A stretch of 64,000 nucleotides of DNA from Rhodococcus sp. W8901 (GTDB lineage Bacteria > Actinomycetota > Actinomycetes > Mycobacteriales > Mycobacteriaceae), in the NCBI RefSeq assembly GCF_013348805.1, contig NZ_CP054690.1, forward strand, positions 1,302,001-1,366,000, in the 5' to 3' direction. Below the pieces are notes generated by a model, which was not told the origin of the DNA, made no database searches, and saw only the letters and a program-made list of their open reading frames with translations. Numbering within the stretch: the stretch's first letter is position 1; each line of letters begins with the position of its first letter. Both the position numbers and the translations under genes were made by a program. Positions 10,510 to 61,151 of the stretch are shown one piece after another.

Positions 10510-10535
10510 TTGGCGCGGAAGTGGGGTGACAGGAA

Positions 10536-42520: not shown

Positions 42521-43168
42521 TCACGCGAGTGGCGCGTCCGTCGCGGCGCGAACCTGCTCCTCGTCGACCCCCGGAGCGCATTCCACGAGAACCAGCCCGG
42601 ACTCGGTCACGTCGATCACCGCGAGGTCGGTGATGATCCGGTTCACCACCGCACGCCCAGTCAGCGGCAACGTGCACCGTTCGACGATCTTCGACGAGCC
42701 TTCCTTGTCCGTGTGCTCCATGAGCACAATGACCCGGCGCGCGCCGTGCACGAGATCCATCGCGCCGCCCATGCCCTTGACCATCTTCCCGGGCACCATC
42801 CAGTTCGCCAGGTCGCCGGTGGCGGAGACCTGCATCCCGCCCAGCACGGCGGTGTCGATGTGACCGCCGCGGATCATGCCGAAGCTGGTAGCGGAGTCGA
42901 AGAACGACGCACCGTCGTTGACGGTGACGGTCTCCTTGCCGGCGTTGATCAGGTCCGCGTCGACGGCGTCCTCGGTGGGGTAGGGGCCGGTGCCCAGGAC
43001 GCCGTTCTCGCTGTGCAGGGTGACCTCGACGCCGTCGGGCAGGTGGTTCGGGATCAGGGTCGGCAGACCGATGCCGAGATTGACGTATTCACCGGTGGTC
43101 AGTTCCTGCGCGGCACGCGCGGCCATCAGCTCGCGGGTCCACCCGACGGTCTCCACGACTGCGGTCAT
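42521..43168 (-). CDS. scoB: 3-oxoacid CoA-transferase subunit B
   Basis: 215-residue beta subunit of a succinyl-CoA:3-oxoacid CoA-transferase: [25 protein letters not shown], catalytic Glu in [14 protein letters not shown], then [40 protein letters not shown] and CTLPLTG. Start overlaps the subunit A stop (ATGA). It activates acetoacetate or another 3-oxoacid with CoA from succinyl-CoA. In this locus the likely substrate is the acetoacetate released by the BKACE enzyme at 49050. Confidence 0.93.
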
Positions 43169-43941
43169 CGTGCGTCCTCCTTCACGGCCGAGACGGTCCG
43201 CTTCTCGATCTTCTTGTCCTGCTGTCCGATATGCACGATGCGGTCGACGTAGATGCCCGGCAGATGTACCTGCTCGGGGTCGAGCTCGCCGGCCTCGACA
43301 ATGACCTCCACCTGCGCGATACACACCCGGCCCGCCATCGCAGCCAGCGGGTTGAAGTTCATCGCGGCCTTGTTGAAGACGAGGTTGCCTTCCGTGTCCG
43401 CGACCATGGCGTGCACCAATGAGAAGTCGGCGACGATGGACTCCTCCAGCACGAACTGCTTGCTGCCGAAGGCGCCACCGAACTCGCGAACCTCCTTCGG
43501 GGGAGAGGCGATCGCGACGGAACCGTCGGCGGCGTACCGCCACGGCAGCCCACCCTCGGAGATCGGCGTGCCTACCCCGGACGGTGTGAAGAAGGCCGGG
43601 ATTCCGGCGCCGCCGGCACGGAGCTTCTCCGCGAGGGTGCCCTGCGGGGTCAGCTCCACCTCGAGTTCACCGGACAGGTACTGCCGTGCGAACTCCTTGT
43701 TCTCCCCGACATAGGACGCTGTGACGCGCCGAATCCTTCTGTCTTCGAGGAGTATCCCGAGTCCGTGCCCGTCGGTTCCACAGTTGTTCGAGAACACCTC
43801 GAAGTCCGTTGCCGTGTGTGCCGCGAGGGCGGCGATCAGCACGTCCGGGATTCCGCACAGTCCGAACCCACCGACGGCTAGGGACGCCCCGGACGGGATG
43901 TCGGCGACAGCGTCGGCCGCCGATGCGTAGATCTTGGTCAT
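43165..43941 (-). CDS. scoA: 3-oxoacid CoA-transferase subunit A
   Basis: 258-residue alpha subunit: [103 protein letters not shown], all typical. ATG 43941 with AAGG upstream. It lies 40 bp after the MFS gene on the same strand and is coupled to subunit B. Together they form the heteromeric enzyme. Confidence 0.94.
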
Positions 43942-43981
43942 GAGTACCTTTCCGTCTCCGACTGTCTCGGTGGTCGCTGGG

Positions 43982-45343
43982 TCAGGCGGACGCAGTGCTC
44001 TGCGATGCGAGCTTGCGCATTCCTGCCGGGTAGAGGCGCTTGCCGACGAGCAGCGCGACGATGGCAGCGATGTAGAAGAGCGGGGCCAGGCTGAGGGACT
44101 CGAGAAGTCCCAGTCGATCGGCGAGGATGCCGATGACGAAGGGGCCCAACGCCAATCCGAGAACATTGTTGGCGATGGTGAGTGTACCGAGTGCCGACGA
44201 GCGGACAGATTCGTGGGTGAGGCTGGCGACCATGGCCGCAGTCGGGCCCGAGCAGCCGGCCGAGAAGAAGGCGCCGATGCCGAGCAGGATCAGCTGGGGT
44301 GCGCCGGTGCCCAACCGGAAGGCGACACCGAGCGCCACGAGTGAGATGACGCAGAACGCGACTGCGGTCATCCACTTGCGTGCCGGGTTGTTACGGCTCA
44401 CCCGGTCGGTGATCATGCCGCACACGACCATTCCCGTGCCGACCAACAGGACGAACAGTGCGGCGACCCCGGCCGCCTTGTCGAGCGCCATACCGTAGTA
44501 CCGGTTGAAGAAGCTGGGCGTCCACGACAGCAGGACGGCCGCGGTGAACATCTGGAATCCGCCGGCGAGGTAAGCACACCACACGGCAGGGTTCGTGAAC
44601 AGCGTGGACACGGGGACCCGGATCACCGGGGCGGACGGCGCGGAGCCGTCGGACGGGGCGACGGGTTCGTCGTGCACGGCGTACTTTGCGAGCCGGGACT
44701 CGGTGACCACGGCCCGGAACAGTGCGACGAGGATGAGTCCCAGCACAGCCATCGCGGTGAACGACCAGCGCCACCCGACGTTGACGGCGATTACACCACC
44801 GAGCGAGACGCCGACCACAGAACCGAAGGATCCGCCGGCCATGAAGGCGCCGCTCAACGACGAGTGCAGACGCGGGGAGAACACGCTCAGGACGACCGCG
44901 ATACCGACGCTGCCGTATGCGGCCTCGCCCACCCCGACGAAGAACCGCGCCGCCAGCATCTGCTCGAAGTTGGACGCGATCGCGCAGCACAGGGTTGCGA
45001 TGCTCCACATCACGGCCATCAGCACCAGGCTTCTGACTCGTCCCCACCGGTCGGCGAGCAGCGACAGCGGGAAGGTCAGGAGCCCGACCATCAGAGCAAC
45101 CACGCTCGTGAGCGAGGCGAGCTGGGAATCGGACAGCGACCAATCGGCCTTCAGCATCGGGAAGACAGCGCTGAGGACCTGTCGGGACATGTAGTCCGAC
45201 AGCAGCAACGCGAAGGCGAGGCCGGCCACGATCCACGGGTACATCCGGCTGCGGCGATTGCTACGTCCGGAGTCGACGGTCTCGGTGTGCGGTGCGTTGG
45301 TGCTTTCGACCGGCTGGTCGGTCAGAGTGGGAGGCAGTCCCAT
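43982..45343 (-). CDS. MFS transporter (aromatic acid/carboxylate importer-like)
   Basis: 453-residue major facilitator with 12 membrane segments in two halves. Motif A appears as SLLADRWGRVRSLVLMA; TM1 has LLSDYMSRQVLSAVFPMLKADWSLSDSQLASL, typical of the ACS/UhpC-NarK-like importers of organic anions. The loop between the halves (RLAKYAVHDEPVAPSDGSAPSAP) is cytoplasmic. Placed between a small peptide gene and the CoA-transferase and transcribed with them, it probably imports the substrate of the locus. Confidence 0.9.
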   Translation of the reverse strand: MGLPPTLTDQPVESTNAPHTETVDSGRSNRRSRMYPWIVAGLAFALLLSDYMSRQVLSAVFPMLKADWSLSDSQLASLTSVVALMVGLLTFPLSLLADRWGRVRSLVLMAVMWSIATLCCAIASNFEQMLAARFFVGVGEAAYGSVGIAVVLSVFSPRLHSSLSGAFMAGGSFGSVVGVSLGGVIAVNVGWRWSFTAMAVLGLILVALFRAVVTESRLAKYAVHDEPVAPSDGSAPSAPVIRVPVSTLFTNPAVWCAYLAGGFQMFTAAVLLSWTPSFFNRYYGMALDKAAGVAALFVLLVGTGMVVCGMITDRVSRNNPARKWMTAVAFCVISLVALGVAFRLGTGAPQLILLGIGAFFSAGCSGPTAAMVASLTHESVRSSALGTLTIANNVLGLALGPFVIGILADRLGLLESLSLAPLFYIAAIVALLVGKRLYPAGMRKLASQSTASA

Positions 45344-45398
45344 GGGTGCTCCTAAAGCGACAGGAGTGGTGGAGGCGGGTGTGCGCGACGACGGACGG

Positions 45399-45509
45399 TT
45401 ACGTCGGCGGGGGCACGGGAGCGGCGGTATCGGCTGCGGACTCGAAAGCCGCCAGCTGCTGCATACGGTCGATCGCCGGAGGGGGTGTCGGCTCGGGGTT
45501 CGTGGTCAT
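45399..45509 (-). CDS. Small Pro-rich peptide upstream of MFS gene
   Basis: 36-codon frame (MTTNPEPTPPPAIDRMQQLAAFESAADTAAPVPPPT) from ATG 45509 to 45399, 55 bp before the MFS start and downstream of the AraC-site motif. Pro-rich ends flank one short helix; no membrane segment. The ribosome site is weak. Reasons to list it are position at the head of the operon and natural composition; it may be a leader peptide or a small transporter partner. Confidence 0.42.
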   Translation of the reverse strand: MTTNPEPTPPPAIDRMQQLAAFESAADTAAPVPPPT

Positions 45510-45615
45510 GGCGGCACTCGTTTCACGGCGGTCGAAATGGATGTGATGCGAGATACGGCTCGCTTGAAAGGTGGCGCAGATCACGTTATCCGGACTTGGC
45601 GGTTCGTGGTTATCC

Positions 45616-45647
45616 CTCGGGGACGCAGTTCTTTGCATTTCGGGACA
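45616..45647 (-). promoter_or_regulatory. Probable AraC-regulator site, MFS-scoAB arm
   Basis: Two-part motif on the minus strand: TGTCCCGAAATG, then 2 nt, AAGAA, 4 nt, then GTCCC, 1 nt, GAG. The half-sites begin with the same GTCCC and are about two helical turns apart, as AraC-type direct repeats are. The same motif with identical spacing precedes the other arm at 46793-46824. It lies 107 bp from the small-peptide start. Confidence 0.72.
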
Positions 45648-45670
45648 GATGTCGGATTTGTCGCGCGCTG

Positions 45671-46708
45671 TCAGCCGTTTGCCGGCGCTTCCGCCGGCGT
45701 GAGGGACTGTCTGCGCCATTCGCGTGGGCTGACGCCGAATTGCTGATGGAACCATCGCGAGAAGCTACTCGGCGTCGAAAACGAGAGCATCTCCGAGATC
45801 TCGGTGAACGAGTACCGCTGACCGCTGACCATGCGATTCGCGAGTTCGGTTCGCGTGGCATCGAGCACGGACGAGAACGTCTGCCCCGACTTCGCGAGGT
45901 GGCGGTGGACCGTCCGGCGGTCGACGCCGAGGCTGCGCGCAACCTGGTCGATGGAACACCGGCCGGTCGGTAGGAGAAGTTCGACGAGTTCGCGCACACG
46001 GTTGGCGATCGTGGGTTCCTCGGGCGTCGTCAGAGTGTCGAGGAACTGTTGCGCGTACGAGCGAAGGTGCGGGTCGGACATCCGGTTGGGTTCGTTCAGA
46101 TCGGCTGTGTAGGTGATGATTCCGCTGAAGTCGTTGTCGAATGTCAGTGGTGCGCCGAACATCTGTCGGTGCGTCGAATCGTCGATCGGCCGGGTGTGGT
46201 CGAAGCAGACCGACACGGGGCGCCAGCGCTCGCCGAGCATGTTGCGGAGCAGTTGGTGGGTGACCGCCACTGCCAGTTCGACTGCCTGTCGGACGATCAT
46301 CGGTTCACCGGGTTCGATCCGGATCCTGATCGCGGTGAGCCCGTCCTTCTCCGACATGCGGATGTGAAGCGATTCGTTGTACATGTGCTGGTAGCGGATC
46401 AGCATGCGAAGTGCGCTGCGTGCGTCGGGTTCCTCCCGGATGCTCACGCTGAGGGGGCCGAGTGTGGAGAACCGGCGGCGCTCGGCGAGTTTGAGGGCGA
46501 AATCCTGGCGCCCGGTCGCCGCTGACGACAATTCCAGGAGGCGAGCGACGGACGATGCCGGAATCCACCGATCCTGGAGGTCGAGGCTGGCCGAATCCAG
46601 GCCGACGGCCCGCAGGAGTTGGACCGGATCGATGCCCAATGTCCGGCTGACCTCGATGTATCCGGTCAACGCGGCATATCGCGCGAGGGGTCTGGCCACG
46701 CTTGTCAC
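45671..46708 (-). CDS. AraC family transcriptional regulator (Arabinose_bd type)
   Basis: 345-residue AraC regulator. N-terminal effector domain of the ArgR/OruR/'Arabinose_bd' type: LARYAALTGYIEVSRTLGIDPVQLLRAVGLDSASLDLQDRWIPASSVARLLELSS. C-terminal pair of helix-turn-helix motifs: CSIDQVARSLGVDRRTVHRHLAKSGQTFSSVLDATRTELANRMV and YSFTEISEMLSFSTPSSFSRWFHQQFGVSPREWRRQ. GTG 46708 is the best start; ATG 46768 would add 20 residues without domain character. It sits between the two arms of the catabolic locus, each of which has a copy of a 32-bp motif, and probably activates both when the substrate is present. Confidence 0.9.
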   Translation of the reverse strand: MTSVARPLARYAALTGYIEVSRTLGIDPVQLLRAVGLDSASLDLQDRWIPASSVARLLELSSAATGRQDFALKLAERRRFSTLGPLSVSIREEPDARSALRMLIRYQHMYNESLHIRMSEKDGLTAIRIRIEPGEPMIVRQAVELAVAVTHQLLRNMLGERWRPVSVCFDHTRPIDDSTHRQMFGAPLTFDNDFSGIITYTADLNEPNRMSDPHLRSYAQQFLDTLTTPEEPTIANRVRELVELLLPTGRCSIDQVARSLGVDRRTVHRHLAKSGQTFSSVLDATRTELANRMVSGQRYSFTEISEMLSFSTPSSFSRWFHQQFGVSPREWRRQSLTPAEAPANG

Positions 46709-46792
46709 CTCGTCTCGACTGTGCCCGACTGCCCCGCAAGGGTAAGTGTGCGGCGGGTCACGTGTCACGGACGGTGTGGTCTGAATCCCGGT

Positions 46793-46824
46793 TGTCCCGA
46801 AATGACAAGAAATATGTCCCTGAG
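46793..46824 (+). promoter_or_regulatory. Probable AraC-regulator site, MDR-dioxygenase-BKACE arm
   Basis: Plus-strand copy of the motif at 45616-45647: TGTCCCGAAATG, 2 nt, AAGAA, 4 nt, GTCCC, 1 nt, GAG. All 25 specified positions agree between the copies and the spacing is the same. It lies 212 bp from the MDR start and 84 bp from the AraC start, so it may also serve autoregulation. Confidence 0.72.
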
Positions 46825-46992
46825 AGGTAAGTGTGATGCCCTCCGAGTCGATACTGTCGTGTCAGCTGAATCACATCGGAACCGAGTTCCGGTTCCAGCG
46901 CCGAGTCGAACCGGGACGGCATGGATCGTCCCCGGGGAGGCGGGGTACATGTTCGAAAAGGTTGCGGTCCAGAAGATCCGGCAGCCGTGTGT

Positions 46993-47020
46993 GCGAGTTC
47001 GTCCACTCGGACGAACTCGC
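46993..47020. promoter_or_regulatory. Perfect 28-bp palindrome before the MDR gene
   Basis: 12-bp arms GCGAGTTCGTCC / GGACGAACTCGC around ACTC, ending 4 bp before the AAGGAG ribosome site. It could be a second operator or an mRNA hairpin that hides or exposes the ribosome site. Confidence 0.62.
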
Positions 47021-47036
47021 GAACAAGGAGATAGCA

Positions 47037-48011
47037 ATGGCAAAGGCGATTCGCTTCTACGAAACCGGTGGTCCGGAAGTCCTGAAGTGGGAGACGGTGG
47101 AGGTCGGCGATCCCGGCCCCGGCGAGGTGCGTATCCGGCACGAGGCCGTGGGCCTGAACTTCGCGGACACCTACTTTCGGACCGGCCTCTACCCGGCCGC
47201 ACTCCCGGCCGGTATGGGTGTCGAGGCCGCCGGCGTCGTCGAGGCCGTGGGCGAGGGCGTCTCCGGCTTCCAGGAGGGTGACCGGGTCACCTACACCGGC
47301 AGCCCGCTGGGTGCGTACAGCACCGAACGCGTGATGCCGGCCGAGCATCTGATCGCACTGCCGGACGGAATCGAGTTCGAGACCGCCGCGGCGATGACGA
47401 TGCGCGGGCTCACGACGTCGTACCTGCTGCGCCGGATCTACCCGTTGAAGGCCGGTGACACGGTCCTGTTGCACGCCGCAGCGGGAGGCGTGGGACTGAT
47501 CTTCTGCCAGTGGGCGAAGCTGCTGGGCATCAATGTGATCGGGACGGTGTCGACCGACGAGAAGGCGGCTGTCGCCAAGGCGCACGGCTGCAGCGAGGTG
47601 ATCGTCTACAAGCGTGAGAACGTGGCCGAGCGGGTGCGTGAGCTCACCGACGGCGCGGGTGTACCGGTCGTCTACGACAGCATCGGTGAATCGACCTACG
47701 AGTCCTCGCTCGACTCGCTGGCACGCCGCGGTCTGCTCGTCGCGTTCGGCACCGCATCGGGACCGATCCCGCCCATCAACGCCATGCAGTTGGCGGTCAA
47801 GGGATCGTTGTTCGTCACCCGCCCGGCACTGGCCGACTACATTGCGGATCCGGCGGAGCGCGCCGAGTTGGCGAACGAGTTGTTCGGCCATGTCGCCGCC
47901 GGCCGTATCTCCATTGAGATCAACCAGCACTATGCGCTCGAAGAGGCCGAGGCGGCCCATCGAGACCTCGAGTCCGGCAAGAGCATCGGTTCTTCGGTGT
48001 TCTCGTTCTGA
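47037..48011 (+). CDS. Quinone oxidoreductase-like MDR protein
   Basis: 324-residue medium-chain dehydrogenase/reductase of the quinone oxidoreductase (QOR, Zn-free) group: MAKAIRFYETGGPEVLKWETVEVGDPGPGEVRIRHEAVGLNFADTYFRTGLYP, then AAAGGVGLIFCQWAKLLG as NADPH motif and GTASGPIPPINAMQL. The Cys/His zinc ligands of alcohol dehydrogenases are absent. ATG 47037 with AAGGAG. First gene of the plus arm of the catabolic locus. It may reduce an enone or quinone intermediate; exact step unknown. Confidence 0.92.
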   Translation: MAKAIRFYETGGPEVLKWETVEVGDPGPGEVRIRHEAVGLNFADTYFRTGLYPAALPAGMGVEAAGVVEAVGEGVSGFQEGDRVTYTGSPLGAYSTERVMPAEHLIALPDGIEFETAAAMTMRGLTTSYLLRRIYPLKAGDTVLLHAAAGGVGLIFCQWAKLLGINVIGTVSTDEKAAVAKAHGCSEVIVYKRENVAERVRELTDGAGVPVVYDSIGESTYESSLDSLARRGLLVAFGTASGPIPPINAMQLAVKGSLFVTRPALADYIADPAERAELANELFGHVAAGRISIEINQHYALEEAEAAHRDLESGKSIGSSVFSF

Positions 48012-48106
48012 CCTGAAAAACCCATTCAGCCAACGTCGTTCGGCGTGCCGACGTAGCACGTGACGGCGCTACGACCTACCACTTCCAGCTTGTACAGGAG
48101 AGTGCC

Positions 48107-49003
48107 ATGACCACTGTCGAACTTGCGCCAGGAGCCCGGACGACCGTCTCGCCCATGGACGCCCGCCCGCTGACCTGCAGCATCGGTGCGGAACTCCACG
48201 GTGTCGACCTTGCCGATGTGTCCCGTGACGCCGACCTCTTCGCCGAACTGCGGTCGCTGCTGCTGAAGCACAAGGTGCTCTTCTTCCGGGATCAGGACAT
48301 GAGCCGGGCCGAGCACGTCGCGTTGGCGGAGCGTTTCGGCTCGCTCGAGGACCATCCGGTGGTCGGCAGCGACCCCGATCATCCCGGTCTCGTGCAGATC
48401 TACAAGGACCTCGACAGCCCGCCGGAGGCGTTCGAGAACTCCTTCCACTGTGACGCGACGTGGCGTGTGAATCCTCCGATGGGGTGCGTCCTCCGCTGTG
48501 TCGAGGGCCCTGCCGTCGGTGGAGACACGATCTGGGTGAACATGGCTCTGGCCTACGAGCGGCTGCCCGAGCGAGTCAAGGAGCGGATCGAGGGGCTGCG
48601 CGCGCGGCACAGCATCGAGGCGTCGTTCGGCGCGCGACTGCCGATGGAGAGGCGCCTCGAGCTCAAGGAACGCTTCCCGGACGCCGAGCATCCGGTGGTC
48701 CGTACCCACCCGGAGACGGGGGAGAAGATCCTCTTCGTCAACAGCTTCACCACGCACCTGACGAACTACCACACCGCCGACAACGTCCGGTGTGGCATCG
48801 ACTACGCCCCGGGCGCCGGTGAGCTGCTGCGGTACCTGCAGAGCCAGGCGACGATCCCGGAGTACCAGGTGCGCTGGCGGTGGACGAAGAACAGCGTCGC
48901 GATCTGGGACAACCGATCGACCCAGCACTACGCGGTCCAGGACTACTGGCCCGCCGTTCGAAAGATGGAACGCGCCGGGATCATCGGCGACCGCACTTTC
49001 TGA
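48107..49003 (+). CDS. TauD/TfdA family Fe(II)/2-oxoglutarate dioxygenase
   Basis: 298-residue 2-oxoglutarate-dependent oxygenase. The facial triad is visible: HxD in NSFHCDATWRVNPP (His114, Asp116) and the distal His in NRSTQHYAVQDYW near residue 270, followed by the Arg of AVRKMERAGI that binds 2-oxoglutarate. N-terminal ELHGVDLADVSRD is typical of TauD/TfdA. Relatives hydroxylate and cleave taurine, alkyl sulphates or aryloxyalkanoates such as 2,4-D. Here it may free a carbon skeleton that later becomes a beta-keto acid. ATG 48107 follows CAGGAGAG. Confidence 0.92.
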   Translation: MTTVELAPGARTTVSPMDARPLTCSIGAELHGVDLADVSRDADLFAELRSLLLKHKVLFFRDQDMSRAEHVALAERFGSLEDHPVVGSDPDHPGLVQIYKDLDSPPEAFENSFHCDATWRVNPPMGCVLRCVEGPAVGGDTIWVNMALAYERLPERVKERIEGLRARHSIEASFGARLPMERRLELKERFPDAEHPVVRTHPETGEKILFVNSFTTHLTNYHTADNVRCGIDYAPGAGELLRYLQSQATIPEYQVRWRWTKNSVAIWDNRSTQHYAVQDYWPAVRKMERAGIIGDRTF

Positions 49004-49049
49004 TATCCGCTTTCCCTACCTCACATCTGTCCAGAAACGGAGTTACACA

Positions 49050-50105
49050 ATGCATTTCCACGATGACGCACTGTTCCCGGAGAACCAGGAGAAGCTGGTT
49101 ATCACTGTCGCGCCGTACGGCCCGGAGTGGGCGGTGGAGGACTTCCCCGAAGACCTGCCGTTGACGATGGACGAGCATGTCCAGCAGGCGGTGGACTGCT
49201 ACGAGGCCGGCGCGACGGTGCTGCACATCCATGTCCGTGAGGAGGACGGTAAGGGCTCCAAGCGGCTGTCGAAGTTCAACGAGCTCCTCGGTCGCCTGCG
49301 TGAGGCGGTGCCGGACATGATCCTGCAGGTCGGTGGTTCGATCTCGTTCGCGCCGGAAGGTGAAGGCGCGGATGCGAAGTGGCTCTCGGATGATGTCCGG
49401 CACATGCTCGCCGAGTTGGATCCGAAGCCGGACCAGGTCACGATCGCGATCAACACCAGCCAGATGAACATCATGGAGTTGATGACGCCGGGTGACATCA
49501 AGGGCACCTCTCTGGAGAACGCCGAGCTCGCCTCGACCTACCGTGAGATGACGGTTCCCGCCGGCCCCGAGTGGGTCGAGGAGCACCTGCGTCGTCTGCA
49601 GGCGGCGGGGATCCAGCCGCATTTCCAGCTTTCGTCGATTCCGCAGCTCGAGACGGTGGAGCGGTTGATCCGTCGGGGCGTGTACACCGGTCCGTTGAAC
49701 CTGACCTGGGTGGCGATCGGTGGTGGCTTCGACGGCCCGAACCCGTACAACATGATGCAGTTCATCAATCGGGTTCCGGACGGCGCGTGCCTGACGCTGG
49801 AGACGCTGATGCGCAGCGTGTTGCCGGTGAACACGATGGCGATCGCGATGGGTCTGCACCCGCGCTGCGGTAACGAGGACAACCTGTGGGCGCCGAGCGG
49901 CGAGGTCAAGATCACCTCGGCCGAGCAGGTCCGTCAGCTGGTGCGGGTTGCCAAGGAGCTCGGCCGTGAGGTTGCCACGGGCAAGGAGGCTCGCGACATC
50001 TACAAGATCGGCACCACCTACGCGAACGCCGACGAGACCCTCGCCGAGCTCGGTTACGCCCCGAACCGTCGCCCCGGCCAGGTCGGCTTCACCCAGCACT
50101 CCTGA
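49050..50105 (+). CDS. Beta-keto acid cleavage enzyme (BKACE, DUF849)
   Basis: 351-residue BKACE family protein (type enzyme Kce, 3-keto-5-aminohexanoate cleavage). These zinc enzymes react a beta-keto acid with acetyl-CoA to give acetoacetate and a new acyl-CoA. Zinc-site pattern: VLHIHVREEDGKGS (His59, His61); later GLHPRCGNEDNLW supplies the conserved Glu/Asn region. LVITVAPYGPEW, QVGGS, IGGGFDGPNPYNMMQF and ARDIYKIGTTY also fit. ATG 49050 with GGAG. Its product acetoacetate is the expected substrate of the CoA-transferase on the other arm. Substrate specificity cannot be read. A 14-bp hairpin follows. Confidence 0.92.
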   Translation: MHFHDDALFPENQEKLVITVAPYGPEWAVEDFPEDLPLTMDEHVQQAVDCYEAGATVLHIHVREEDGKGSKRLSKFNELLGRLREAVPDMILQVGGSISFAPEGEGADAKWLSDDVRHMLAELDPKPDQVTIAINTSQMNIMELMTPGDIKGTSLENAELASTYREMTVPAGPEWVEEHLRRLQAAGIQPHFQLSSIPQLETVERLIRRGVYTGPLNLTWVAIGGGFDGPNPYNMMQFINRVPDGACLTLETLMRSVLPVNTMAIAMGLHPRCGNEDNLWAPSGEVKITSAEQVRQLVRVAKELGREVATGKEARDIYKIGTTYANADETLAELGYAPNRRPGQVGFTQHS

Positions 50106-50140
50106 CCCGCTGTCTCACGTCTGCGACAGCACCTCTCGAT

Positions 50141-50172
50141 GGAGCGGGGACGCCCACAGGCGTCCCCGCTCC
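50141..50172 (+). terminator. Hairpin between BKACE and hydrolase genes
   Basis: Perfect 14-bp stem GGAGCGGGGACGCC / GGCGTCCCCGCTCC with loop CACA, 35 bp after the BKACE stop and 35 bp before the next start. It may terminate part of the transcripts and set lower expression of the last two genes. Confidence 0.75.
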
Positions 50173-50207
50173 GTCTGCCCGCCTCGAGATCTTTTGGAGG
50201 AAATGCC

Positions 50208-50801
50208 TTGAGCAGCTCCGTTTCCCCGACCGTCGTGATCGTTCCCGGACTGCGTGACCACGTCGAGGACCACTGGCAGACCCTGTTGGCCGCCGGCCTG
50301 GACAAGGTCCGTACCGTCCCGCCGCTCGAGCACGACAAGCTCAGCCTCGACGCCCGTGTGGCCGCGCTCGACGCCGTCCTGGCCGACATCGACGGCCCCG
50401 TCGTGCTCGTCGCGCACAGCGCCGGCGTGATGATCACCGTGCACTGGGCCGCCCGGCACGACCGCCCGGTGGCGGGCGCGATCCTGGCCACCCCGTCGGA
50501 CCTCTCCACCCCGCTGCCGGCCGGATACCCGGCGCTGGCGGACCTCGAGGCGAACGGCTGGAACCCGGTGCCGCGCAGCCCGCTGCCGTTCCCGAGCATC
50601 GTCGCCGCCAGCACCAACGACCCGCTGGCCGATTTCGCCGTCGTCGTCGACCTCGCACACGCGTGGGGCGGCCGTCTCGTCGACCTCGGCGAGGTCGGAC
50701 ACCTCAACCCCGCCTCGGGCTACGGCGAATGGCCCCGCGCGACCGAGCTTCTCGACGAACTGTTCACCACGATCGGCGTCCAGACCGCGCCGAGCCACTG
50801 A
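50208..50801 (+). CDS. RBBP9/YdeN-type alpha/beta serine hydrolase
   Basis: 197-residue small alpha/beta hydrolase: SPTVVIVPGLRDHVEDHWQTLL, nucleophile Ser in PVVLVAHSAGVMITVHWA, acid in AASTNDPLADF and catalytic His in DLGEVGHLNPASGYGEW, all characteristic of RBBP9/YdeN. TTG 50208 is supported by GGAGG at 7 bp; the open frame upstream covers only the hairpin. It follows the BKACE hairpin and precedes the acyl-CoA ligase. It may hydrolyse the acyl-CoA or an ester in the pathway; this is inference. Confidence 0.88.
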   Translation: MSSSVSPTVVIVPGLRDHVEDHWQTLLAAGLDKVRTVPPLEHDKLSLDARVAALDAVLADIDGPVVLVAHSAGVMITVHWAARHDRPVAGAILATPSDLSTPLPAGYPALADLEANGWNPVPRSPLPFPSIVAASTNDPLADFAVVVDLAHAWGGRLVDLGEVGHLNPASGYGEWPRATELLDELFTTIGVQTAPSH

Positions 50802-50834
50802 CCTTCACGACCGCTGCCCGAGAGAGACGCCCCG

Positions 50835-52388
50835 ATGCTCAATCTGTCCATGTTCCTGGAAGACTCGGCCCGCAAGTACCCGAGCCGCGACGCGCTGGTG
50901 CTGGGGGACGACCGGTTCACCTACGCGGAGACCGACGGTCTCGCGAACCAGGTCGCCAATCTCCTCGTCGCGTCGGGCATCGTTCCCGGTGACCGCGTCG
51001 CCATCTCCTGCCCCAACCTGCCGTGGTTCCCGATCGTCTACTACGGGATCCTCAAGGCGGGCGCCGTGGTCGTGCCGCTCAACGTCCTGCTGAAGGGACG
51101 GGAGATCGCCTACCACCTGCAGGACTGCGGGGCGGTCGCCTACTTCTGCTTCGAGGGCGGACCGGATCTGCCGATCGGCGAGTACGGACGGGACGGCTTC
51201 GACGAGGCGCCCTCGTGTCGAACGATGTTCGTGATCGGCGGCGACGGCAGCGTCGCAGCCGGCAGCGATGTGGGAATCACCGCGCTCTCGACGGTGCTGC
51301 CCGACCAGCCGTCGACGTTCGAGTCGGTGGCGCGGGAAGCCACGGACACTGCGGTCATCCTCTACACGAGCGGGACGACCGGCCGGCCGAAGGGCGCCGA
51401 GCTGACCCAGTCGAACATGGTCATGAACGCCATCGCCTCGAACCGGTTGTTCGACAGCAGCCCGAGCCTGCACGACACCCACCTGCTGACGCTTCCTCTG
51501 TTCCATTCGTTCGGGCAGACGATCAACATGAACGCCGGTTTCTCGGTGGGCGCGACGCTCGTGCTGCTCCCGCGTTTCGAGGCGAGCGCGGCGCTGGACA
51601 TCATGGAGCGCGAGTCGATCACGATGTTCGCGGGCGTGCCGACGATGTACTGGGGCCTGCTCGGAGCCGTCGACGACTCGGTCGACGTGGGCCGGATCGC
51701 CGCCAACCTCCGCAAGGCGATATCCGGGGGCGCGGCGCTGCCGGTGGAGATCCTCGAGCGCTTCGCGAGGCGATTCGGGGTCCAGATCCTCGAGGGATAC
51801 GGGCTGTCCGAGACCTCACCGGTCGCCCTGTTCAGCGATCCGGAGCAGGCACCGCGAGCGGGATCGATCGGGATCCCGATCTGGGGCGTCGACGTGCGCC
51901 TCGTCGATCGTGACTGGAACACCGTCGACGAAATCGGCGCCGTCGGCGAACTCGCGATCCGCGGACACAACGTGATGAAGGGCTACTACGGTCGGCCGGA
52001 GGCCACCGACGAGGTGATGCGCGACGGTTGGTTCCGCACGGGCGATCTGGCCCGCCGCGACGACGACGGTTTCTACTACATCGTGGACCGAGCCAAGGAC
52101 ATGATCGTGCGCGGTGGGTTCAACGTCTATCCGCGGGAGATCGAGGAAGTCCTCATGACACACGAGGCGGTCTCGTTGGCGGCCGTGATCGGAGTGCCGC
52201 ACGAGAGCCACGGCGAGGAGGTCCGCGCCTACGTCATCCCGCACGAGGGCTCCGGGATCTCGGCCGACGAGTTGATCGCCTGGTCGAAGGACCGGATGGC
52301 GAGCTACAAGTACCCGCGCGAGGTGCGGATCGTGGATCAGCTCCCGATGACCGGCACGGGGAAGATCCTCAAGCGCGAACTGGTGTGA
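50835..52388 (+). CDS. AMP-binding acyl-CoA ligase
   Basis: 517-residue adenylate-forming acid:CoA ligase. AMP-binding motif VILYTSGTTGRPKGAELTQSNMV at about 175-197; later GYGLSETSPVALF, the hinge GWFRTGDLARRDDDGFYYIVDRAKDMIVRGGFNVYPREIEEVL and catalytic Lys in PMTGTGKILKREL. Most like medium/long-chain fatty-acid ligases (FadD-like). ATG 50835, 33 bp after the hydrolase. Last gene of the plus arm; it would activate a carboxylic acid substrate or product of the locus with ATP and CoA. Confidence 0.93.
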   Translation: MLNLSMFLEDSARKYPSRDALVLGDDRFTYAETDGLANQVANLLVASGIVPGDRVAISCPNLPWFPIVYYGILKAGAVVVPLNVLLKGREIAYHLQDCGAVAYFCFEGGPDLPIGEYGRDGFDEAPSCRTMFVIGGDGSVAAGSDVGITALSTVLPDQPSTFESVAREATDTAVILYTSGTTGRPKGAELTQSNMVMNAIASNRLFDSSPSLHDTHLLTLPLFHSFGQTINMNAGFSVGATLVLLPRFEASAALDIMERESITMFAGVPTMYWGLLGAVDDSVDVGRIAANLRKAISGGAALPVEILERFARRFGVQILEGYGLSETSPVALFSDPEQAPRAGSIGIPIWGVDVRLVDRDWNTVDEIGAVGELAIRGHNVMKGYYGRPEATDEVMRDGWFRTGDLARRDDDGFYYIVDRAKDMIVRGGFNVYPREIEEVLMTHEAVSLAAVIGVPHESHGEEVRAYVIPHEGSGISADELIAWSKDRMASYKYPREVRIVDQLPMTGTGKILKRELV

Positions 52389-54012: not shown

Positions 54013-54038
54013 GCGGATGTGTGTTGTCACACATCCGC
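54013..54038. terminator. Hairpin between GH5 and tetR genes
   Basis: Perfect 11-bp stem GCGGATGTGTG / CACACATCCGC with loop TTGT. It overlaps the last codons of the convergent tetR gene and could end transcription from either side. Confidence 0.65.
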
Positions 54039-54638
54039 TTTCACCATTCGTTCCGCGAAGGCCGCGAACGACGCGCCCACCGACTCGGGGGTATGCAGCT
54101 CGCGGGACGGGTACCACCGCACCGTGTCGATACACAGCGACAGAACCGCGAGGGTGGTGACGTCGATGTTGTCCACCGCGAACTCCCCGTCACGCGTGCC
54201 GTCCGAGATGATCGAACGGACGGTGGCGACGATGTCCCGGCGTAGTTGCACCACCCGCGCGTGGTTCTCGTCGTCGAGCGCGGCGAGTTCGTACTGCACG
54301 ACCCGGGCGGTCCTGTGGTTCTCGGCGTGCCAGTGAGCGAACGCGTAGACGGCGGCACGCAGGCGTTTCGTCGGAGATCCCGCGGTCTCGGCGCCGGCGC
54401 GCAGGGCCGCGTACGCCGCGATGTGCCCCTCGAGGCTCAGCCTGGCCAGCACGTCCTGCTTGGACCGGAAGTGGATGTACATCGCGGCGGGGCTCATGTT
54501 CGCCCCCGCGGCGATCTCGCGCGTGCTGGTCCCGTGGTAGCCCTTCGCGGCGAACGCGTCGCGCGCGGAGTCGAGTAGCCGCTGCTCGGCCTCCCCGATG
54601 GGGCGGTCCGCGCGCGGTCCTGCTGATTGCGATGACAT
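54027..54638 (-). CDS. TetR family regulator of the adjacent beta-oxidation genes
   Basis: 203-residue TetR regulator. HTH: RLLDSARDAFAAKGYHGTSTREIAAGANMSPAAMYIHFRSKQDVLARL, then a helical C-terminal domain with a TetR_C-like RTARVVQYELAALDDENHARVVQLRRDI. ATG 54638 has GGAG at good spacing; longer frames upstream run through the promoter. It is divergent from the acyl-CoA dehydrogenase, with palindrome B between them. A near-identical palindrome and promoter precede the thiolase operon, so it most likely represses both, released by an acyl-CoA. Confidence 0.9.
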   Translation of the reverse strand: MSSQSAGPRADRPIGEAEQRLLDSARDAFAAKGYHGTSTREIAAGANMSPAAMYIHFRSKQDVLARLSLEGHIAAYAALRAGAETAGSPTKRLRAAVYAFAHWHAENHRTARVVQYELAALDDENHARVVQLRRDIVATVRSIISDGTRDGEFAVDNIDVTTLAVLSLCIDTVRWYPSRELHTPESVGASFAAFAERMVKADV

Positions 54639-54688
54639 CTGTCTCCGACCTCCGGCGCATCCGCCGACCCGATGTCGGCGTTTCCGCA

Positions 54689-54731
54689 TTGACTTTCCCA
54701 CACTCTCGTCGCAAACTAAGCGAGCGCTTAG
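54689..54731 (+). promoter_or_regulatory. Promoter with TetR box B before acyl-CoA dehydrogenase
   Basis: A -35-like TTGACT at 54689-54694 is followed 17 bp later by CAAACT and, overlapping it, the perfect palindrome CTAAGCGAGCGCTTAG (54716-54731). The same three elements with identical spacing occur at 56482-56524. A repressor on the palindrome would block RNA polymerase. Confidence 0.75.
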
Positions 54732-54762
54732 CCGATGGAGGTTGAGTCGGAAAGGGTACGAA

Positions 54763-55908
54763 GTGAAGAGAGCAGTTTTCACCGCCGATCACGAGCAGTT
54801 CCGCGCGGCGGTCCACGACTTCCTGGCGCGGGAAGTGGTCCCTAACGTCGAGTCCCACAGCGAGAACAAGCTGATCGCGCGCGAGGTGTGGCGTGAGGCC
54901 GGCAAGCAGGGCATCCTCGGCCTCGAGATTCCGGAGGTCTACGGCGGCAGCGAGGCCGGTGACTACCGGTTCAACGCGGTCGCGACCGAGGAGTTGGCCG
55001 CCGTCAACATGGCCCTCGCGTCGAGCTTCGGGATCCATTTCGACATCGTGACGCCGTACGTGGTCGACCTCGCGTCGGAGGAGCAGAAGCAGCAGTGGCT
55101 GCCGCGGATGGCGTCCGGTGACGCGGTGGCGGCGATCGGCATGACCGAGCCGTCTGCGGGCTCGGACCTGGCCAATCTGAAGTCGTCCGCCGTTCGCGAC
55201 GGCTCCGACTGGATTCTCAACGGATCCAAGACCTTCATCACGAACGGCTACACCGCCGACGTGGTGGTCGTCGCGGCGCGAACCGACCCGACACAGCGTT
55301 CCAAGGGCATCAGCCTCTTCCTCGTCGATGCGTCGCTCCCGGGCTTCGAGCGGGGACGCAAGCTCGACAAGGTGGGCCAGCCCGAGTCCGACACCGCCGA
55401 ACTGTTCTTCGACAACGTCCGTCTCCCGGCCGACGCGCTGCTGGGCGAGCCCGGCACGGGATTCGTGGCGATGATGGAACGCCTCCCGCAGGAGCGCATC
55501 GGCGCCGCGGTGACCAATGTCGCGCACGCCAAGCAGATCCTGCTGGAGACGATCGAATACGCCAAGGATCGCAAGGCGTTCGGGAACTCGATCGGTTCGT
55601 TCCAGCACAACAAGTTCCTGCTGGCCGAGCTGGTCACGAAGATCGAGGTGGCGCAGGCGTACATCGATGCGGCGGTCGCCCAGCACTCCGATGCCGGGCT
55701 CAGCGCCGTCGACGCGGCCAAGGCCAAGTGGTGGTCGGCGCAGGTGCAGAACGAGGTGCTCGACCACTGCGTGCAGCTGCACGGCGGCTACGGCTACATG
55801 CGCGAGTACCGCGTCGCGCGCGCCTGGATGGACGCGCGCGTCACGAAGATCTGGGCCGGATCCAACGAGATCATGAAGGAAATCATCGGGCGCGATCTCG
55901 CGCTGTGA
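54763..55908 (+). CDS. Acyl-CoA dehydrogenase
   Basis: 381-residue FAD-dependent acyl-CoA dehydrogenase, first step of beta-oxidation. Signature segments: AIGMTEPSAGSDLANLKSSA (FAD/substrate), WILNGSKTFITNGYTADVVVVAART, ERIGAAVTNVAHAKQILLETIEYAKDRKAFG and C-terminal QLHGGYGYMREYRVARAWMDARVTKIWAGSNEIMKEIIGRDL. The catalytic base is expected in the last segment. GTG 54763 with GGAAAGGG; single gene ended by a strong hairpin. Controlled by box B. Chain-length or side-chain specificity not predictable. Confidence 0.94.
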   Translation: MKRAVFTADHEQFRAAVHDFLAREVVPNVESHSENKLIAREVWREAGKQGILGLEIPEVYGGSEAGDYRFNAVATEELAAVNMALASSFGIHFDIVTPYVVDLASEEQKQQWLPRMASGDAVAAIGMTEPSAGSDLANLKSSAVRDGSDWILNGSKTFITNGYTADVVVVAARTDPTQRSKGISLFLVDASLPGFERGRKLDKVGQPESDTAELFFDNVRLPADALLGEPGTGFVAMMERLPQERIGAAVTNVAHAKQILLETIEYAKDRKAFGNSIGSFQHNKFLLAELVTKIEVAQAYIDAAVAQHSDAGLSAVDAAKAKWWSAQVQNEVLDHCVQLHGGYGYMREYRVARAWMDARVTKIWAGSNEIMKEIIGRDLAL

Positions 55909-55915
55909 TCCTCGC

Positions 55916-55957
55916 CCTCCCGATCCGTGGGGCTCGTGCGCCCCGCGGATCGGGAGG
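55916..55957 (+). terminator. Terminator hairpin after acyl-CoA dehydrogenase
   Basis: Stem of 12 bp (CCTCCCGATCCG / CGGATCGGGAGG), one T-G pair, then 5 more bp (GGGGC / GCCCC) around a 6-nt loop. It begins 8 bp after the stop. Confidence 0.85.
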
Positions 55958-56056
55958 CCGGCACCAGTGCGTGTCTCCTGTTCGGCGGCGAGTCCCTCTC
56001 CACCTGTGAAAGAGGCCCCCCGCGACAATCGAGGGCCACTGTCGGCCGTCGTATCC

Positions 56057-56302
56057 CTACATGAAGTTCGCCCCGGCGAAAGTGTGTGAGTCGCCACCGC
56101 TTCGGTACCCGATTCGATCCTTCTCGATGGAGAAGGCGTATGCGAGGTCGGCCAGGGAGAAGAAGGCCGCGTGGACCGCCGCCCACCCGGCACGTCTACG
56201 GCCGCATCGTCGATGACGCGATACTGCCCGTGCGCCGACAATTTCGTCCCCGCACCGGAATTTGCCTTCAGCGCGCCTTGTGACGGCCGGTGGCGCATCC
56301 AC
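56057..56302 (-). pseudogene. Possible remnant of a PaaI-like hotdog thioesterase gene
   Basis: The 81-codon frame contains AAVHAAFFSLADLAYAFSIE, resembling the HGGxxFxLADxAFAFA helix of PaaI thioesterases, and stops after TFAGANFM, where the family normally continues for 60 residues. The N-terminal half does not match and no ribosome site is clear. Box C lies 6 bp upstream. A decayed former member of the regulon is the best reading, but chance similarity is possible. Confidence 0.33.
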
Positions 56303-56307
56303 CGATC

Positions 56308-56325
56308 AATAAGCGATTGCTTATT
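56308..56325. promoter_or_regulatory. TetR-regulon palindrome C
   Basis: AATAAGCGATTGCTTATT, 7-bp arms around GATT. It shares TAAGCGA-N2-GCTTA with boxes A, B and D. It stands before the possible hotdog remnant on the minus strand, 184 bp upstream of box D. Confidence 0.6.
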
Positions 56326-56481
56326 CTGGTGGAGCACATCTAGCTGCTGCAGTGCGGCCCTGGCCGACTGCCCCTCGAGGCGTGACCTCCGTGTTGCACG
56401 CGCAAGATCAACTGTTCGAACTGTTGTCGTGCTCGGCCAGAACCAGATTCGGTCCACCTGCTTCCGTCTCCGCGGCTGGGA

Positions 56482-56524
56482 TTGACTTTCGCGAGCAACC
56501 GCCCCAAACTAAGCGAACGCTTAG
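56482..56524 (+). promoter_or_regulatory. Promoter with TetR box D before thiolase operon
   Basis: TTGACT at 56482-56487, 17 bp, CAAACT at 56505-56510, overlapped by the palindrome CTAAGCGAACGCTTAG (56509-56524). The layout copies 54689-54731 exactly, indicating co-regulation. The leader to the thiolase ATG is about 200 nt. Confidence 0.75.
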
Positions 56525-56724
56525 CGATCCGCCCTATGGGCGGAGGTCGAGGCGGAACGGGGACCGACCGCGCGGGCAAGCGCCGCGTCGCGCGCGTGGA
56601 TGACATGTCTGCCCGCGACGACGCTCCCGGCCGGTTCGACCGAGTTCACGTAGGAAGTCACTCTGGCGCGAGTTGGCGCTGTTACCTGTGCCGGCTGCGG
56701 CCGGCGGAACGGGAGTTACGAATC

Positions 56725-57948: not shown

Positions 57949-58712
57949 TGACCGAAACGATTGGGACACAGACAACGTCGAACGTGTCGTTCGACTTCAC
58001 CGGCCAGTCCGTGATCGTGACCGGCGGTGGACGCGGCATCGGGCTCGAGTTGGGGCGCTTCTTCCACGAGACCGGTGCCACCGTGTACCTCGTCGACTTC
58101 GACGGCGATGCGGTGACCGAAGCGGCTGCCGAGGTGGGGTGCCGCTGTGCCGTAGCCGACGTGAGCAACAGCGATTCGGTCCAGTCCGTGGTCGATCGCG
58201 TGATCGCCGAGACCGGTCGGATCGACGTGCTGGTCAACAATGCCGGCATCCTCCGCGACCGAGTCCTCTGGAAGCTCACAGACGACGACTACGAGCAGGT
58301 CATGGCGGTCCATGCGGGCGGGACGTTCCGGTTCAGCCGCGCCTGTGTGCCCCATTTCCGCGAGCGCGGTTACGGCCGCATCGTCAACGTCACCTCCTAC
58401 ACGGGTCTGCGCGGCAATCCGGGCCAGGCGAACTACGCCATGGCCAAGGCCGGGATCATCGGTTTCACCAAGACCGCCGCGAAGGAACTCGCCCGATTCG
58501 GTGTGACGGTCAACGCGATCTCGCCCAACGCCGAGACCAGGATGATCGCCTCCATCCCGGAGGACAAGAAGGCCGAGTTGATCGCACAGGTCCCGATGGG
58601 CCGCTTCGCCGATCCCCGCGAGATGGCGGCGGCGGTCGCGTTCCTCGCATCGACGAACGCCGGATACATCACCGGCACCGTGCTTCCTGTCGACGGCGGG
58701 ATCTCGATATGA
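57948..58712 (+). CDS. SDR family 3-hydroxyacyl-CoA dehydrogenase/reductase (FabG-like)
   Basis: 254-residue classical SDR: TGGGRGIGLELG at residues about 26-37, NNAGILRD, catalytic Ser in NVTSYTG and YAMAK. The ILRD..LWKLTDDDY segment is typical of multifunctional-enzyme-type hydroxyacyl-CoA dehydrogenases, so oxidation of 3-hydroxyacyl-CoA is likely. Coupled to thiolase upstream and to the next SDR downstream (ATGA). Confidence 0.9.
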   Translation: MTETIGTQTTSNVSFDFTGQSVIVTGGGRGIGLELGRFFHETGATVYLVDFDGDAVTEAAAEVGCRCAVADVSNSDSVQSVVDRVIAETGRIDVLVNNAGILRDRVLWKLTDDDYEQVMAVHAGGTFRFSRACVPHFRERGYGRIVNVTSYTGLRGNPGQANYAMAKAGIIGFTKTAAKELARFGVTVNAISPNAETRMIASIPEDKKAELIAQVPMGRFADPREMAAAVAFLASTNAGYITGTVLPVDGGISI

Positions 58713-61050: not shown

Positions 61051-61106
61051 ACTACGACAATCCTTCGTCGACCGGCTGTTCGGTAGAGACCGATTGAGCA
61101 ACGGGT

Positions 61107-61123
61107 CATACCGAATTGATATG
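61107..61123. promoter_or_regulatory. Possible LysR-type operator
   Basis: CATA-N9-TATG interrupted dyad with an AATT centre, in the 101-bp gap between the divergent yeiH and lysR starts. It fits the loose T-N11-A LysR pattern; only one copy is visible. Confidence 0.4.
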
Positions 61124-61151
61124 TAAGCGCGGTCGGCCATACAGTTGTCGC

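What the first reader, a model, noticed from the sequence alone, without database searches (positions are those of the whole stretch)
42521..52388. Uncharacterised BKACE-centred catabolic locus with two divergent arms
Seen: minus arm with small peptide, MFS importer and both 3-oxoacid CoA-transferase subunits; AraC regulator; plus arm with Zn-free MDR, TauD/TfdA dioxygenase, BKACE (DUF849), RBBP9-type hydrolase and acyl-CoA ligase. Known: BKACE converts a beta-keto acid plus acetyl-CoA to acetoacetate plus a new acyl-CoA, and CoA-transferases reactivate acetoacetate. Inferred: import, oxygenative release of a carbon skeleton (TauD), activation or oxidation to a beta-keto acid, BKACE cleavage, acetoacetate recycling and hydrolysis or activation of the acyl part. 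I do not know a described pathway with this combination. The dioxygenase suggests a substrate with a C-S, C-O-aryl or C-O-sulphate bond.
Basis: partly seen in the sequence, partly recalled or inferred. Interest (0 to 1): 0.78.

Follow-up and report, generated by a model that had tools for sequence, protein, structure and literature searches.

The report
Conserved dioxygenase–DUF849 breakdown gene cluster
A set of bacterial genes that keeps company across many species, and looks switched on together, appears to import and oxidatively break down an unidentified compound, probably one carrying sulfur, and its central enzyme lacks catalytic residues of the known family it is named after, so it may do new chemistry.

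Summary
The genes are there and form one unit. In 101 genomes of the host family the TauD oxygenase and this DUF849 ("BKACE") clade occur in the same 29. TauD, QOR, DUF849, hydrolase and MFS keep company mainly in actinobacteria, with single complete sets seen in Caballeronia and Novosphingobium. A 28-bp two-box element has exactly two perfect matches in the 5.7-Mb genome, one before each arm. The "BKACE" label is doubtful: zinc ligands are kept, but the Glu essential in Paracoccus BKACE is Gln, Ala or Val in 91 of 91 sequences and a Tyr implicated in catalysis is absent in 89 of 91. A preprint reports non-BKACE chemistry for a DUF849 enzyme with Phe at that Tyr position. Support for a sulfonate: the genome's only YeiH-family gene, divergent from a LysR gene, lies 11 kb from TauD; such a gene lies within 12 kb of TauD in 11 of 29 genomes (0.17 expected). 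Best reading: an AraC-controlled route, which I did not find described, in which TauD releases sulfite and a non-canonical DUF849 enzyme processes the carbonyl product. The substrate is unknown.

The parts
42521..43186 (-). 3-oxoacid CoA-transferase subunit B (ScoB/PcaJ family)
   Evidence: TIGR02428 332.9 bits, cut-off 243.6
43165..43944 (-). 3-oxoacid CoA-transferase subunit A (ScoA/PcaI family)
   Evidence: TIGR02429 217.1 bits, cut-off 128.5
43982..45343 (-). MFS transporter, probable importer of an organic anion (direction and substrate inferred)
   Evidence: PF07690; in 74 of 77 TauD-type loci
   Evidence: N-terminus and C-terminus of CMD joined, middle missing; intact CMD at this place in L007, L010, L015
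45620..45647 (+). operator-like element before the minus arm, GGGAC-N16-CGGGACA type
   Evidence: one of two perfect matches in the whole genome
45671..46768 (-). AraC-type regulator with Arabinose_bd N-terminal domain (true start uncertain)
   Evidence: PF12625, PF12833
46793..46820 (-). operator-like element before the plus arm
   Evidence: second perfect match in the genome; with up to 3 mismatches, less than 600 bp before QOR in 53 of 75 loci
47034..48011 (+). MDR of the NADPH:quinone reductase type (QOR); zinc ligands not checked here
   Evidence: NF008024 383.9 bits, cut-off 348
48107..49003 (+). TauD/TfdA-family 2-oxoglutarate/Fe(II) oxygenase
   Evidence: PF02668 228 bits; closest solved 5vn6
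49050..50105 (+). DUF849 (PF05853) enzyme of a clade without the canonical Glu and Tyr
50139..50801 (+). RBBP9-type serine hydrolase; S94 and D161 invariant in 10 of 10 aligned rows, the HLN His in the 8 rows that reach it (start uncertain)
   Evidence: PF06821 138 bits; alignment
50835..52388 (+). AMP-forming acyl-CoA ligase
   Evidence: PF00501 302 bits; a ligase hit in 39 of 77 TauD-type loci, some weak
59998..61140 (-). YeiH-like transporter; the only PF03601 gene of the genome (linked; membership inferred)
   Evidence: PF03601 245 bits; TIGR00698 176.7, below its cut-off of 232.6
61116..62075 (+). divergent LysR regulator, YeiE-like (linked; start uncertain)
   Evidence: PF03466, PF00126; YeiE model 146 bits, below its cut-off of 480
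54027..59916 (.). neighbouring TetR / acyl-CoA dehydrogenase / thiolase / two SDR / MaoC group; may complete acyl-CoA breakdown, membership uncertain
   Evidence: no operator-like element there at up to 3 mismatches

Best explanation
One AraC-controlled catabolic regulon. Shown by sequence: a conserved gene set, one operator-like element before each arm, perfect co-occurrence of TauD with this DUF849 clade in the sampled host family, and linkage to a YeiH-like/LysR pair. Inferred: AraC binds the element; the MFS carrier imports an organic anion, most likely a sulfonate; TauD hydroxylates the carbon that bears the sulfonate, which collapses to a carbonyl and sulfite; the YeiH-like protein relieves sulfite stress; the carbonyl product (a beta-keto acid if the sulfonate sits beta to a carboxylate, the most economical case) goes to the zinc DUF849 enzyme. 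Because that enzyme lacks the canonical Glu and Tyr, it probably does not do the textbook BKACE exchange but a variant: acyl transfer with decarboxylation as in BsfD, or hydrolytic C-C cleavage. CMD acts next to it. QOR, the serine hydrolase, the CoA-transferase and the acyl-CoA ligase handle enone, ester/thioester and 3-oxoacid intermediates on the way to acetyl-CoA.
For: Synteny; the full six-gene core in Novosphingobium, Caballeronia, Tsukamurella and Streptomyces records, five of six in Azoarcus. Co-occurrence in the same 29 of 101 genomes. Operator-like element: two perfect matches genome-wide, one per arm; at up to 3 mismatches 6 matches against 0 for the reversed control pattern; 13 of 13 loci with MFS on the opposite strand have a second copy before MFS. 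PF03601: in 25 of 29 TauD-positive against 29 of 72 TauD-negative genomes (p 2e-5), within 12 kb of TauD in 11 of 29 genomes, 9 genera, 0.17 expected; YeiE/YeiH give sulfite resistance in Salmonella (PMC12880088, abstract and passages). DUF849 residues. CMD: four genomes with a second, CMD-bearing DUF849 locus have no CMD match at their other high-identity copy, while five genomes with one DUF849 gene all have a CMD within about 5 kb of it; decay of the old CMD seen in three sequences. DUF849 gene conversion between two loci in three genomes.
Against: No substrate is known and no reaction was measured. The operator-like element is not at the YeiH-like gene, and four of 29 TauD-positive genomes have no PF03601 match. 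Within the fetched loci a YeiH-like gene is near 16 of 77 with TauD (three of them only 28-36% identical) and 0 of 14 without, too few to be decisive. The YeiH-like and LysR proteins miss the curated cut-offs for YeiH and YeiE. A YeiH protein was not detected in Rhodococcus releasing sulfite from dibenzothiophene (PMC8557817, passages). TauD residues matching the sulfonate ligands are also in PlaO1, so they do not discriminate. Twenty-two of 75 loci lack the element before QOR at 3 mismatches; the pattern was derived from the window and five of those loci; one of 100 shuffles of the window also gave two matches at up to 3 mismatches. Cupriavidus metallidurans has only TauD and DUF849 in the 19 kb taken, and Diaphorobacter and Ensifer have DUF849 without TauD. 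SCOT is absent near about half the loci. The DUF849 model has mean pLDDT 62, so another residue might replace the missing base.
Confidence: 0.45

Rival explanations
1. One reading: a canonical BKACE cleaves a beta-keto acid with acetyl-CoA to acetoacetate and a new acyl-CoA; SCOT reactivates acetoacetate, using that acyl-CoA or succinyl-CoA as CoA donor.
For: PF05853 219.9 bits; Zn ligands H59, H61, E276 and R272, D277 in 91 of 91; SCOT near 36 of 77 TauD-type loci; an annotated acetoacetate-CoA ligase at the Streptomyces locus; the CORE-cycle paper proposes CoA-transferase recycling of acetoacetate and reports BKACE making acetoacetate (PMC11961710, passages).
Against: Catalytic Glu replaced by Q/A/V in 91 of 91 and Tyr absent in 89 of 91; far below the cut-offs of the four NCBIfam DUF849 models that matched (139 against 382 for the best); among the 40 plasmid records listed, 23 are 60-88% identical, one 49% and 16 about 28-31%, so the clade stands apart.
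Confidence: 0.25
2. The oxygenase acts on something other than a sulfonate: a sulfate ester, an ether or a plain C-H; the YeiH link is unrelated or serves sulfate.
For: TauD-family members also cleave alkyl sulfates and aryloxy ethers (AtsK, phenoxypropionate and 2,4-D dioxygenases among the solved relatives); the family equivalog cut-off for taurine dioxygenase is not met (232.5 against 313); a YeiH-family gene is near TauD in only 11 of 29 genomes.
Against: Eleven of 29 in 9 genera against 0.17 expected is hard to ascribe to chance, and the LysR next door resembles the sulfite sensor YeiE, though below its cut-off.
Confidence: 0.25
3. A beta-ketoadipate-like lower pathway: CMD as PcaC, the hydrolase as PcaD, the CoA-transferase as PcaIJ, with DUF849 as a second way to cut 3-oxoadipate.
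For: The parts have counterparts; a DUF849 enzyme cutting 3-oxoadipate is modelled in NCBIfam and such a role was proposed for a COG3246 protein near catechol genes (PMC6449761, passages).
Against: CMD scores 19.6 against the PcaC cut-off of 155.7; DUF849 85.6 against 350 for the 3-oxoadipate model; no ring-cleavage gene in the core set.
Confidence: 0.05

Closest known systems
BKACE / Kce (DUF849, PF05853), e.g. Kce of Cloacamonas (2y7d) and BKACE15 of Paracoccus (8rio, 8rip, 9hnf)
   Same: Pfam family, TIM-barrel fold (Foldseek best hit 2y7d, E 3e-13), Zn ligands, Arg and Asp
   Different: Glu143/171 and Tyr145/173 missing, GGSIS in place of the STGG stretch of Kce (alignment there is uncertain), longer loop after strand 3 and longer C-terminus; about 26% identity
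BsfD of the flavophos cluster (DUF849, 9zsc)
   Same: Departs from BKACE at the Tyr position and has an insertion after strand 3 (PMC12871164, section 8)
   Different: BsfD keeps the Glu and belongs to a biosynthetic cluster; here the Glu is Gln and the context looks catabolic
Taurine dioxygenase TauD and alkylsulfatase AtsK
   Same: Fe ligands, 2OG Arg, and the residues aligned with H70 and R270 (roles recalled)
   Different: The taurine amine ligands Y73 and N95 (roles recalled) correspond to V86 and E110; the near relative 5vn6 is a solved entry whose function I did not find
YeiE-YeiH sulfite resistance pair
   Same: PF03601 gene divergent from a LysR gene
   Different: Both below the curated YeiH and YeiE cut-offs; linked to a catabolic locus
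Bacterial carnitine or lysine catabolic BKACE loci (recalled)
   Same: DUF849 in a catabolic context
   Different: TauD and QOR as partners; no carnitine dehydrogenase or lysine aminomutase gene among the core genes

Membership tests
Canonical BKACE | PF05853 domain and DUF849 fold | tested here: met
   219.9 bits against 24.8; best Foldseek hits are DUF849 entries, model mean pLDDT 62
Canonical BKACE | Zn ligands His, His, Glu | tested here: met
   H59, H61, E276 in 91 of 91
Canonical BKACE | catalytic base Glu (E171 of Paracoccus BKACE) | tested here: not met
   Q 86, A 4, V 1 of 91; Glu in the 5 of 5 distinct solved DUF849 proteins whose alignment covers the position
Canonical BKACE | Tyr145/173 | tested here: not met
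   Tyr in 2 of 91; among those 5 solved proteins Tyr in 3, Phe in 9zsc and 3no5
Canonical BKACE | turns beta-keto acid plus acetyl-CoA into acetoacetate | not testable with these tools
   needs enzyme assay
Taurine dioxygenase | TauD domain with Fe ligands | tested here: met
   PF02668; H114, D116, H274 invariant in 10 of 10
Taurine dioxygenase | NCBIfam equivalog cut-off | tested here: not met
   232.5 against 313
Taurine dioxygenase | amine ligands Y73 and N95 (roles recalled) | tested here: not met
   V86 (variable) and E110, mapped by hand on the alignments
YeiH sulfite-resistance protein | PF03601 domain | tested here: met
   245 bits against 24.5
YeiH sulfite-resistance protein | TIGR00698 cut-off | tested here: not met
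   176.7 against 232.6
YeiE regulator | NF040889 cut-off | tested here: not met
   146 against 480
3-oxoacid CoA-transferase | TIGR02428 and TIGR02429 cut-offs | tested here: met
   332.9 and 217.1 bits, both above cut-off; substrate not resolved by these models
4-carboxymuconolactone decarboxylase PcaC | TIGR02425 cut-off | tested here: not met
   19.6 against 155.7 for the L007 protein; no match for the L004 protein
NADPH:quinone reductase (QOR) | NF008024 cut-off | tested here: met
   383.9 against 348

The most novel reading that the evidence does not exclude
An undescribed sulfonate-degradation pathway, apparently passed between distant bacteria, whose key C-C step is catalysed by a new DUF849 subfamily that works without the Glu base and Tyr of known BKACEs, and whose DUF849 gene is kept nearly identical by gene conversion between two different pathways of one cell.
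Probability: 0.33. Interest if true: 0.8.

Novelty: new variant of a known kind. Interest (0 to 1): 0.6.

Why it matters
In the seven annotated plasmid records that I opened the clade is called '3-keto-5-aminohexanoate cleavage protein', which its active site does not support. The module gives enzyme assays with a short candidate list (sulfite release by TauD, fate of a beta-keto acid), a defined regulon with a proposed operator, and a natural comparison (the same DUF849 gene in two pathways). If the sulfonate reading holds, it adds a route to organosulfur turnover in soil actinobacteria.

Tried and rejected
Carnitine, lysine or phloroglucinol catabolism as the pathway: partner genes that I expected from memory are not among the core genes, and the lysine, 3,5-dioxohexanoate and 3-oxoadipate DUF849 models are missed by far. 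Two independent operons: held unlikely because the same element stands before each arm and because MFS and SCOT move into the plus operon in relatives (MFS on the DUF849 strand in 61 of 74, SCOT in 30 of 36). The 'small peptide' as a functional gene: rejected, decayed CMD. Sulfonate-ligand residues in TauD as proof: dropped, since PlaO1 shares them. A known beta-sulfo acid as named substrate: a search on 3-sulfopropionate and 3-sulfobutyrate (listing only) gave nothing that fits. Published descriptions of the cluster: none seen in the listings; two searches were too broad to be useful. Substrate pocket from the AF2 model: not attempted, 205 of 351 residues are below pLDDT 70. One L004 stretch (12140-13010) gave no family, perhaps the wrong frame, and was not used. 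Acetoacetate-CoA ligase as a general stand-in for SCOT: seen in Streptomyces only; a 29% hit in L021 is not counted. No tree was built, so horizontal transfer rests on the scatter of hosts and on plasmids alone.
Full report
What is there. The window lies in a single-contig genome of 5,713,496 bases. The closest DUF849 relatives are in Prescottella and Rhodococcus. The plus arm is tight: QOR, TauD, DUF849, serine hydrolase and acyl-CoA ligase follow each other with gaps of 34-96 bases. The minus arm is MFS, SCOT_A and SCOT_B. One item is reinterpreted: the small ORF between AraC and MFS is the rest of a CMD-family gene. In L007, L010 and L015 an intact CMD gene stands there; in the window the first ~18 residues run into the last few with the middle missing; L006 and L017 show other, different decay (read by eye).

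One conserved unit. The search for related loci kept the best 80 of 240 relatives. With eight plasmid records (of 40 listed and 464 matched), two own-genome loci and the window, 91 loci were examined. TauD and DUF849 stand together in 77 of the 91; in those 77, QOR is found in 75, AraC 74, MFS 74, hydrolase 72, a ligase hit 39 (some only 25-36% identical), SCOT_A 36, CMD 34. The six-gene core AraC, QOR, TauD, DUF849, hydrolase, MFS is complete in Novosphingobium (conjugative plasmid), Caballeronia, Tsukamurella and Streptomyces. Azoarcus has five of the six, without AraC. Against a uniform picture: Cupriavidus metallidurans has only TauD and DUF849 in the 19 kb taken, and the more distant Diaphorobacter and Ensifer copies stand without TauD. 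Among 101 genomes of the family, TauD (E 1e-80 or better) is in 29 and the DUF849 clade in 29, and they are the same 29 (Fisher 6e-26; related genomes are not independent). In 296 genomes drawn from the phylum four carry the clade at that threshold, the window's own included. Of the 40 plasmid records listed, 23 are 60-88% identical, one 49%, and 16 about 28-31%; 424 are unlisted.

One regulon. A BLAST comparison of the two promoter regions found a 38-base inverted match (30 of 38 identical). The pattern GGGACNNNNTTCTNNNCNNNTCGGGACA has exactly two perfect matches in the genome, 45620-45647 and 46793-46820, one before each arm; with up to three mismatches there are four more, and none for the pattern read backwards. 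In the window alone, one of 100 shuffles also gave two matches at up to three mismatches; perfect matches are the stronger evidence. One of the four weaker genome matches lies at the third DUF849 locus, just before its AraC gene. In 53 of 75 loci with TauD, DUF849 and QOR a match (up to three mismatches) stands less than 600 bp before QOR; in 13 of 13 loci with MFS on the opposite strand a second one stands before MFS, and in 4 of the other 17 loci with MFS placed elsewhere. The pattern was built from the window and five of these loci (L006, L007, L010, L011, L015), so those do not count as independent. No match was found in the type-2 loci L004, L013, L014, nor at the YeiH-like gene. That AraC binds the element is inferred.

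The DUF849 enzyme is not a textbook BKACE. Zn ligands H59, H61, E276 and R272, D277 are invariant in 91 of 91, and a model of low confidence (mean pLDDT 62) still finds Kce as best match. But alignments to solved structures place position 193 opposite Glu171 of Paracoccus BKACE, whose change to Leu abolished activity and to Asp left 5% (PMC11961710, section 9 and passages read), and position 195 opposite Tyr173/Tyr145, implicated in BKACE catalysis (PMC12871164, section 8 and passages read). Position 193 is Gln in 86, Ala in 4 (the type-3 loci), Val in 1; position 195 is Ser 73, Ala 9, Thr 5, Gly 2, Tyr 2. BsfD, a DUF849 enzyme with Phe at the Tyr position and an insertion after strand 3, acetylates and decarboxylates instead of cleaving (same preprint). 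The present clade also has a longer loop after strand 3, by comparison with the second DUF849 protein of L090, with R117 and H118 invariant. One caution: 3no5 also has Phe at the Tyr position, so that position is less strict than the preprint says. The four NCBIfam DUF849 models that matched are missed widely. I therefore do not file it as a BKACE, though it may still work on beta-keto acids.

A link to sulfite. The genome has one PF03601 (YeiH family) gene, 11.06 kb from TauD, with a LysR gene in divergent orientation. In the 101 genomes 25 of 29 TauD-positive ones have a PF03601 gene against 29 of 72 others (p 2e-5), and in 11 of 29, from 9 of the 13 TauD-positive genera, it is within 12 kb of TauD, where 0.17 would be expected from uniform placement (kinship not corrected). 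Its place relative to the core differs between lineages, and in Novosphingobium a 'putative sulfate exporter' follows MFS directly. YeiH with its regulator YeiE gives sulfite resistance in Salmonella (PMC12880088, abstract and passages). Against: neither protein passes the curated YeiH or YeiE cut-off; four positive genomes lack a PF03601 match; within the fetched loci the contrast is 16 of 77 with TauD (three weak) against 0 of 14 without; and a YeiH protein was not detected in a sulfite-producing Rhodococcus culture (PMC8557817, passages).

Three loci, one enzyme. The genome has a type-2 locus at 490 kb (AraC, CMD, amidohydrolase, NMT1-type binding protein) and a type-3 locus at 5,655 kb (AraC, MFS, acyl-CoA ligase). 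The type-1 and type-2 DUF849 genes are 99.4% identical in the window genome, 97.0% in P. agglutinans and 97.1% in P. defluvii, but 89-93% between these species; at third codon positions 94-99% against 75-84%; outside the gene identity falls to chance. This is what repeated gene conversion limited to about the gene would leave. In the genus (14 genomes, 9 with the clade), the four with a CMD 93-100% identical to the type-2 one (G000, G075, G101, G102) have no CMD match at their other high-identity DUF849 copy; the five with a single DUF849 gene all have a CMD within about 5 kb of it. G101 has one more partial CMD at a fourth DUF849 copy. TauD was checked in six of these nine genomes. CMD and DUF849 thus look like a shared pair of steps of two pathways; the losses may go back to few events.

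How it may work. Shown: gene set, linkage, conserved element, residue changes, near-identity of two DUF849 genes. Inferred: anion import by MFS; TauD hydroxylation at the carbon with the sulfonate giving a carbonyl and sulfite; sulfite handled by the YeiH-like protein; DUF849 and CMD acting on the carbonyl product; 3-oxoacid activation by SCOT or, in Streptomyces, an annotated acetoacetate-CoA ligase; acyl-CoA steps by the ligase and perhaps the neighbouring TetR-linked acyl-CoA dehydrogenase, thiolase, SDR and MaoC genes. If the sulfonate is beta to a carboxylate, TauD yields a beta-keto acid directly. The role of QOR is open. I saw no account of this cluster in the held literature (listings only; subscription journals largely missing). 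The founding BKACE paper of 2014 is recalled and was not read; PMC3149333 was not held. PMC4922564 and PMC12133276 were seen in passages.

Noticed in passing
window 49050-50105 and L004 9959-11014: Two DUF849 genes in unlike operons are 99.4% identical, with the same within-genome pattern in two more species: gene conversion limited to about the reading frame.
   Followed up: yes
L004 (own genome 480.6-500.6 kb): Type-2 locus with AraC, CMD, DUF849, NMT1-type binding protein and a 578-aa amidohydrolase: a second pathway using the same DUF849 enzyme, substrate unknown.
   Followed up: partly
L005 (own genome 5645-5665 kb): Type-3 locus with AraC, MFS, DUF849 (Leu191/Ala193 in place of His/Gln) and acyl-CoA ligase; a degenerate copy of the operator-like element stands before its AraC gene.
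   Followed up: partly
window 52480-53967: GH5 glycosidase resembling endoglycoceramidase I (112 bits, far below the cut-off of 700), found near the locus in seven loci, the window included.
   Followed up: no
window 54027-59916: TetR-linked acyl-CoA dehydrogenase, thiolase, two SDR and MaoC genes: a beta-oxidation-like group between the locus and the YeiH-like gene.
   Followed up: partly
L093 (Ensifer plasmid) 9037-11985: A 49% identical DUF849 (Val at the Glu position) beside VOC and CMD genes without TauD: an outlying member of the clade.
   Followed up: no
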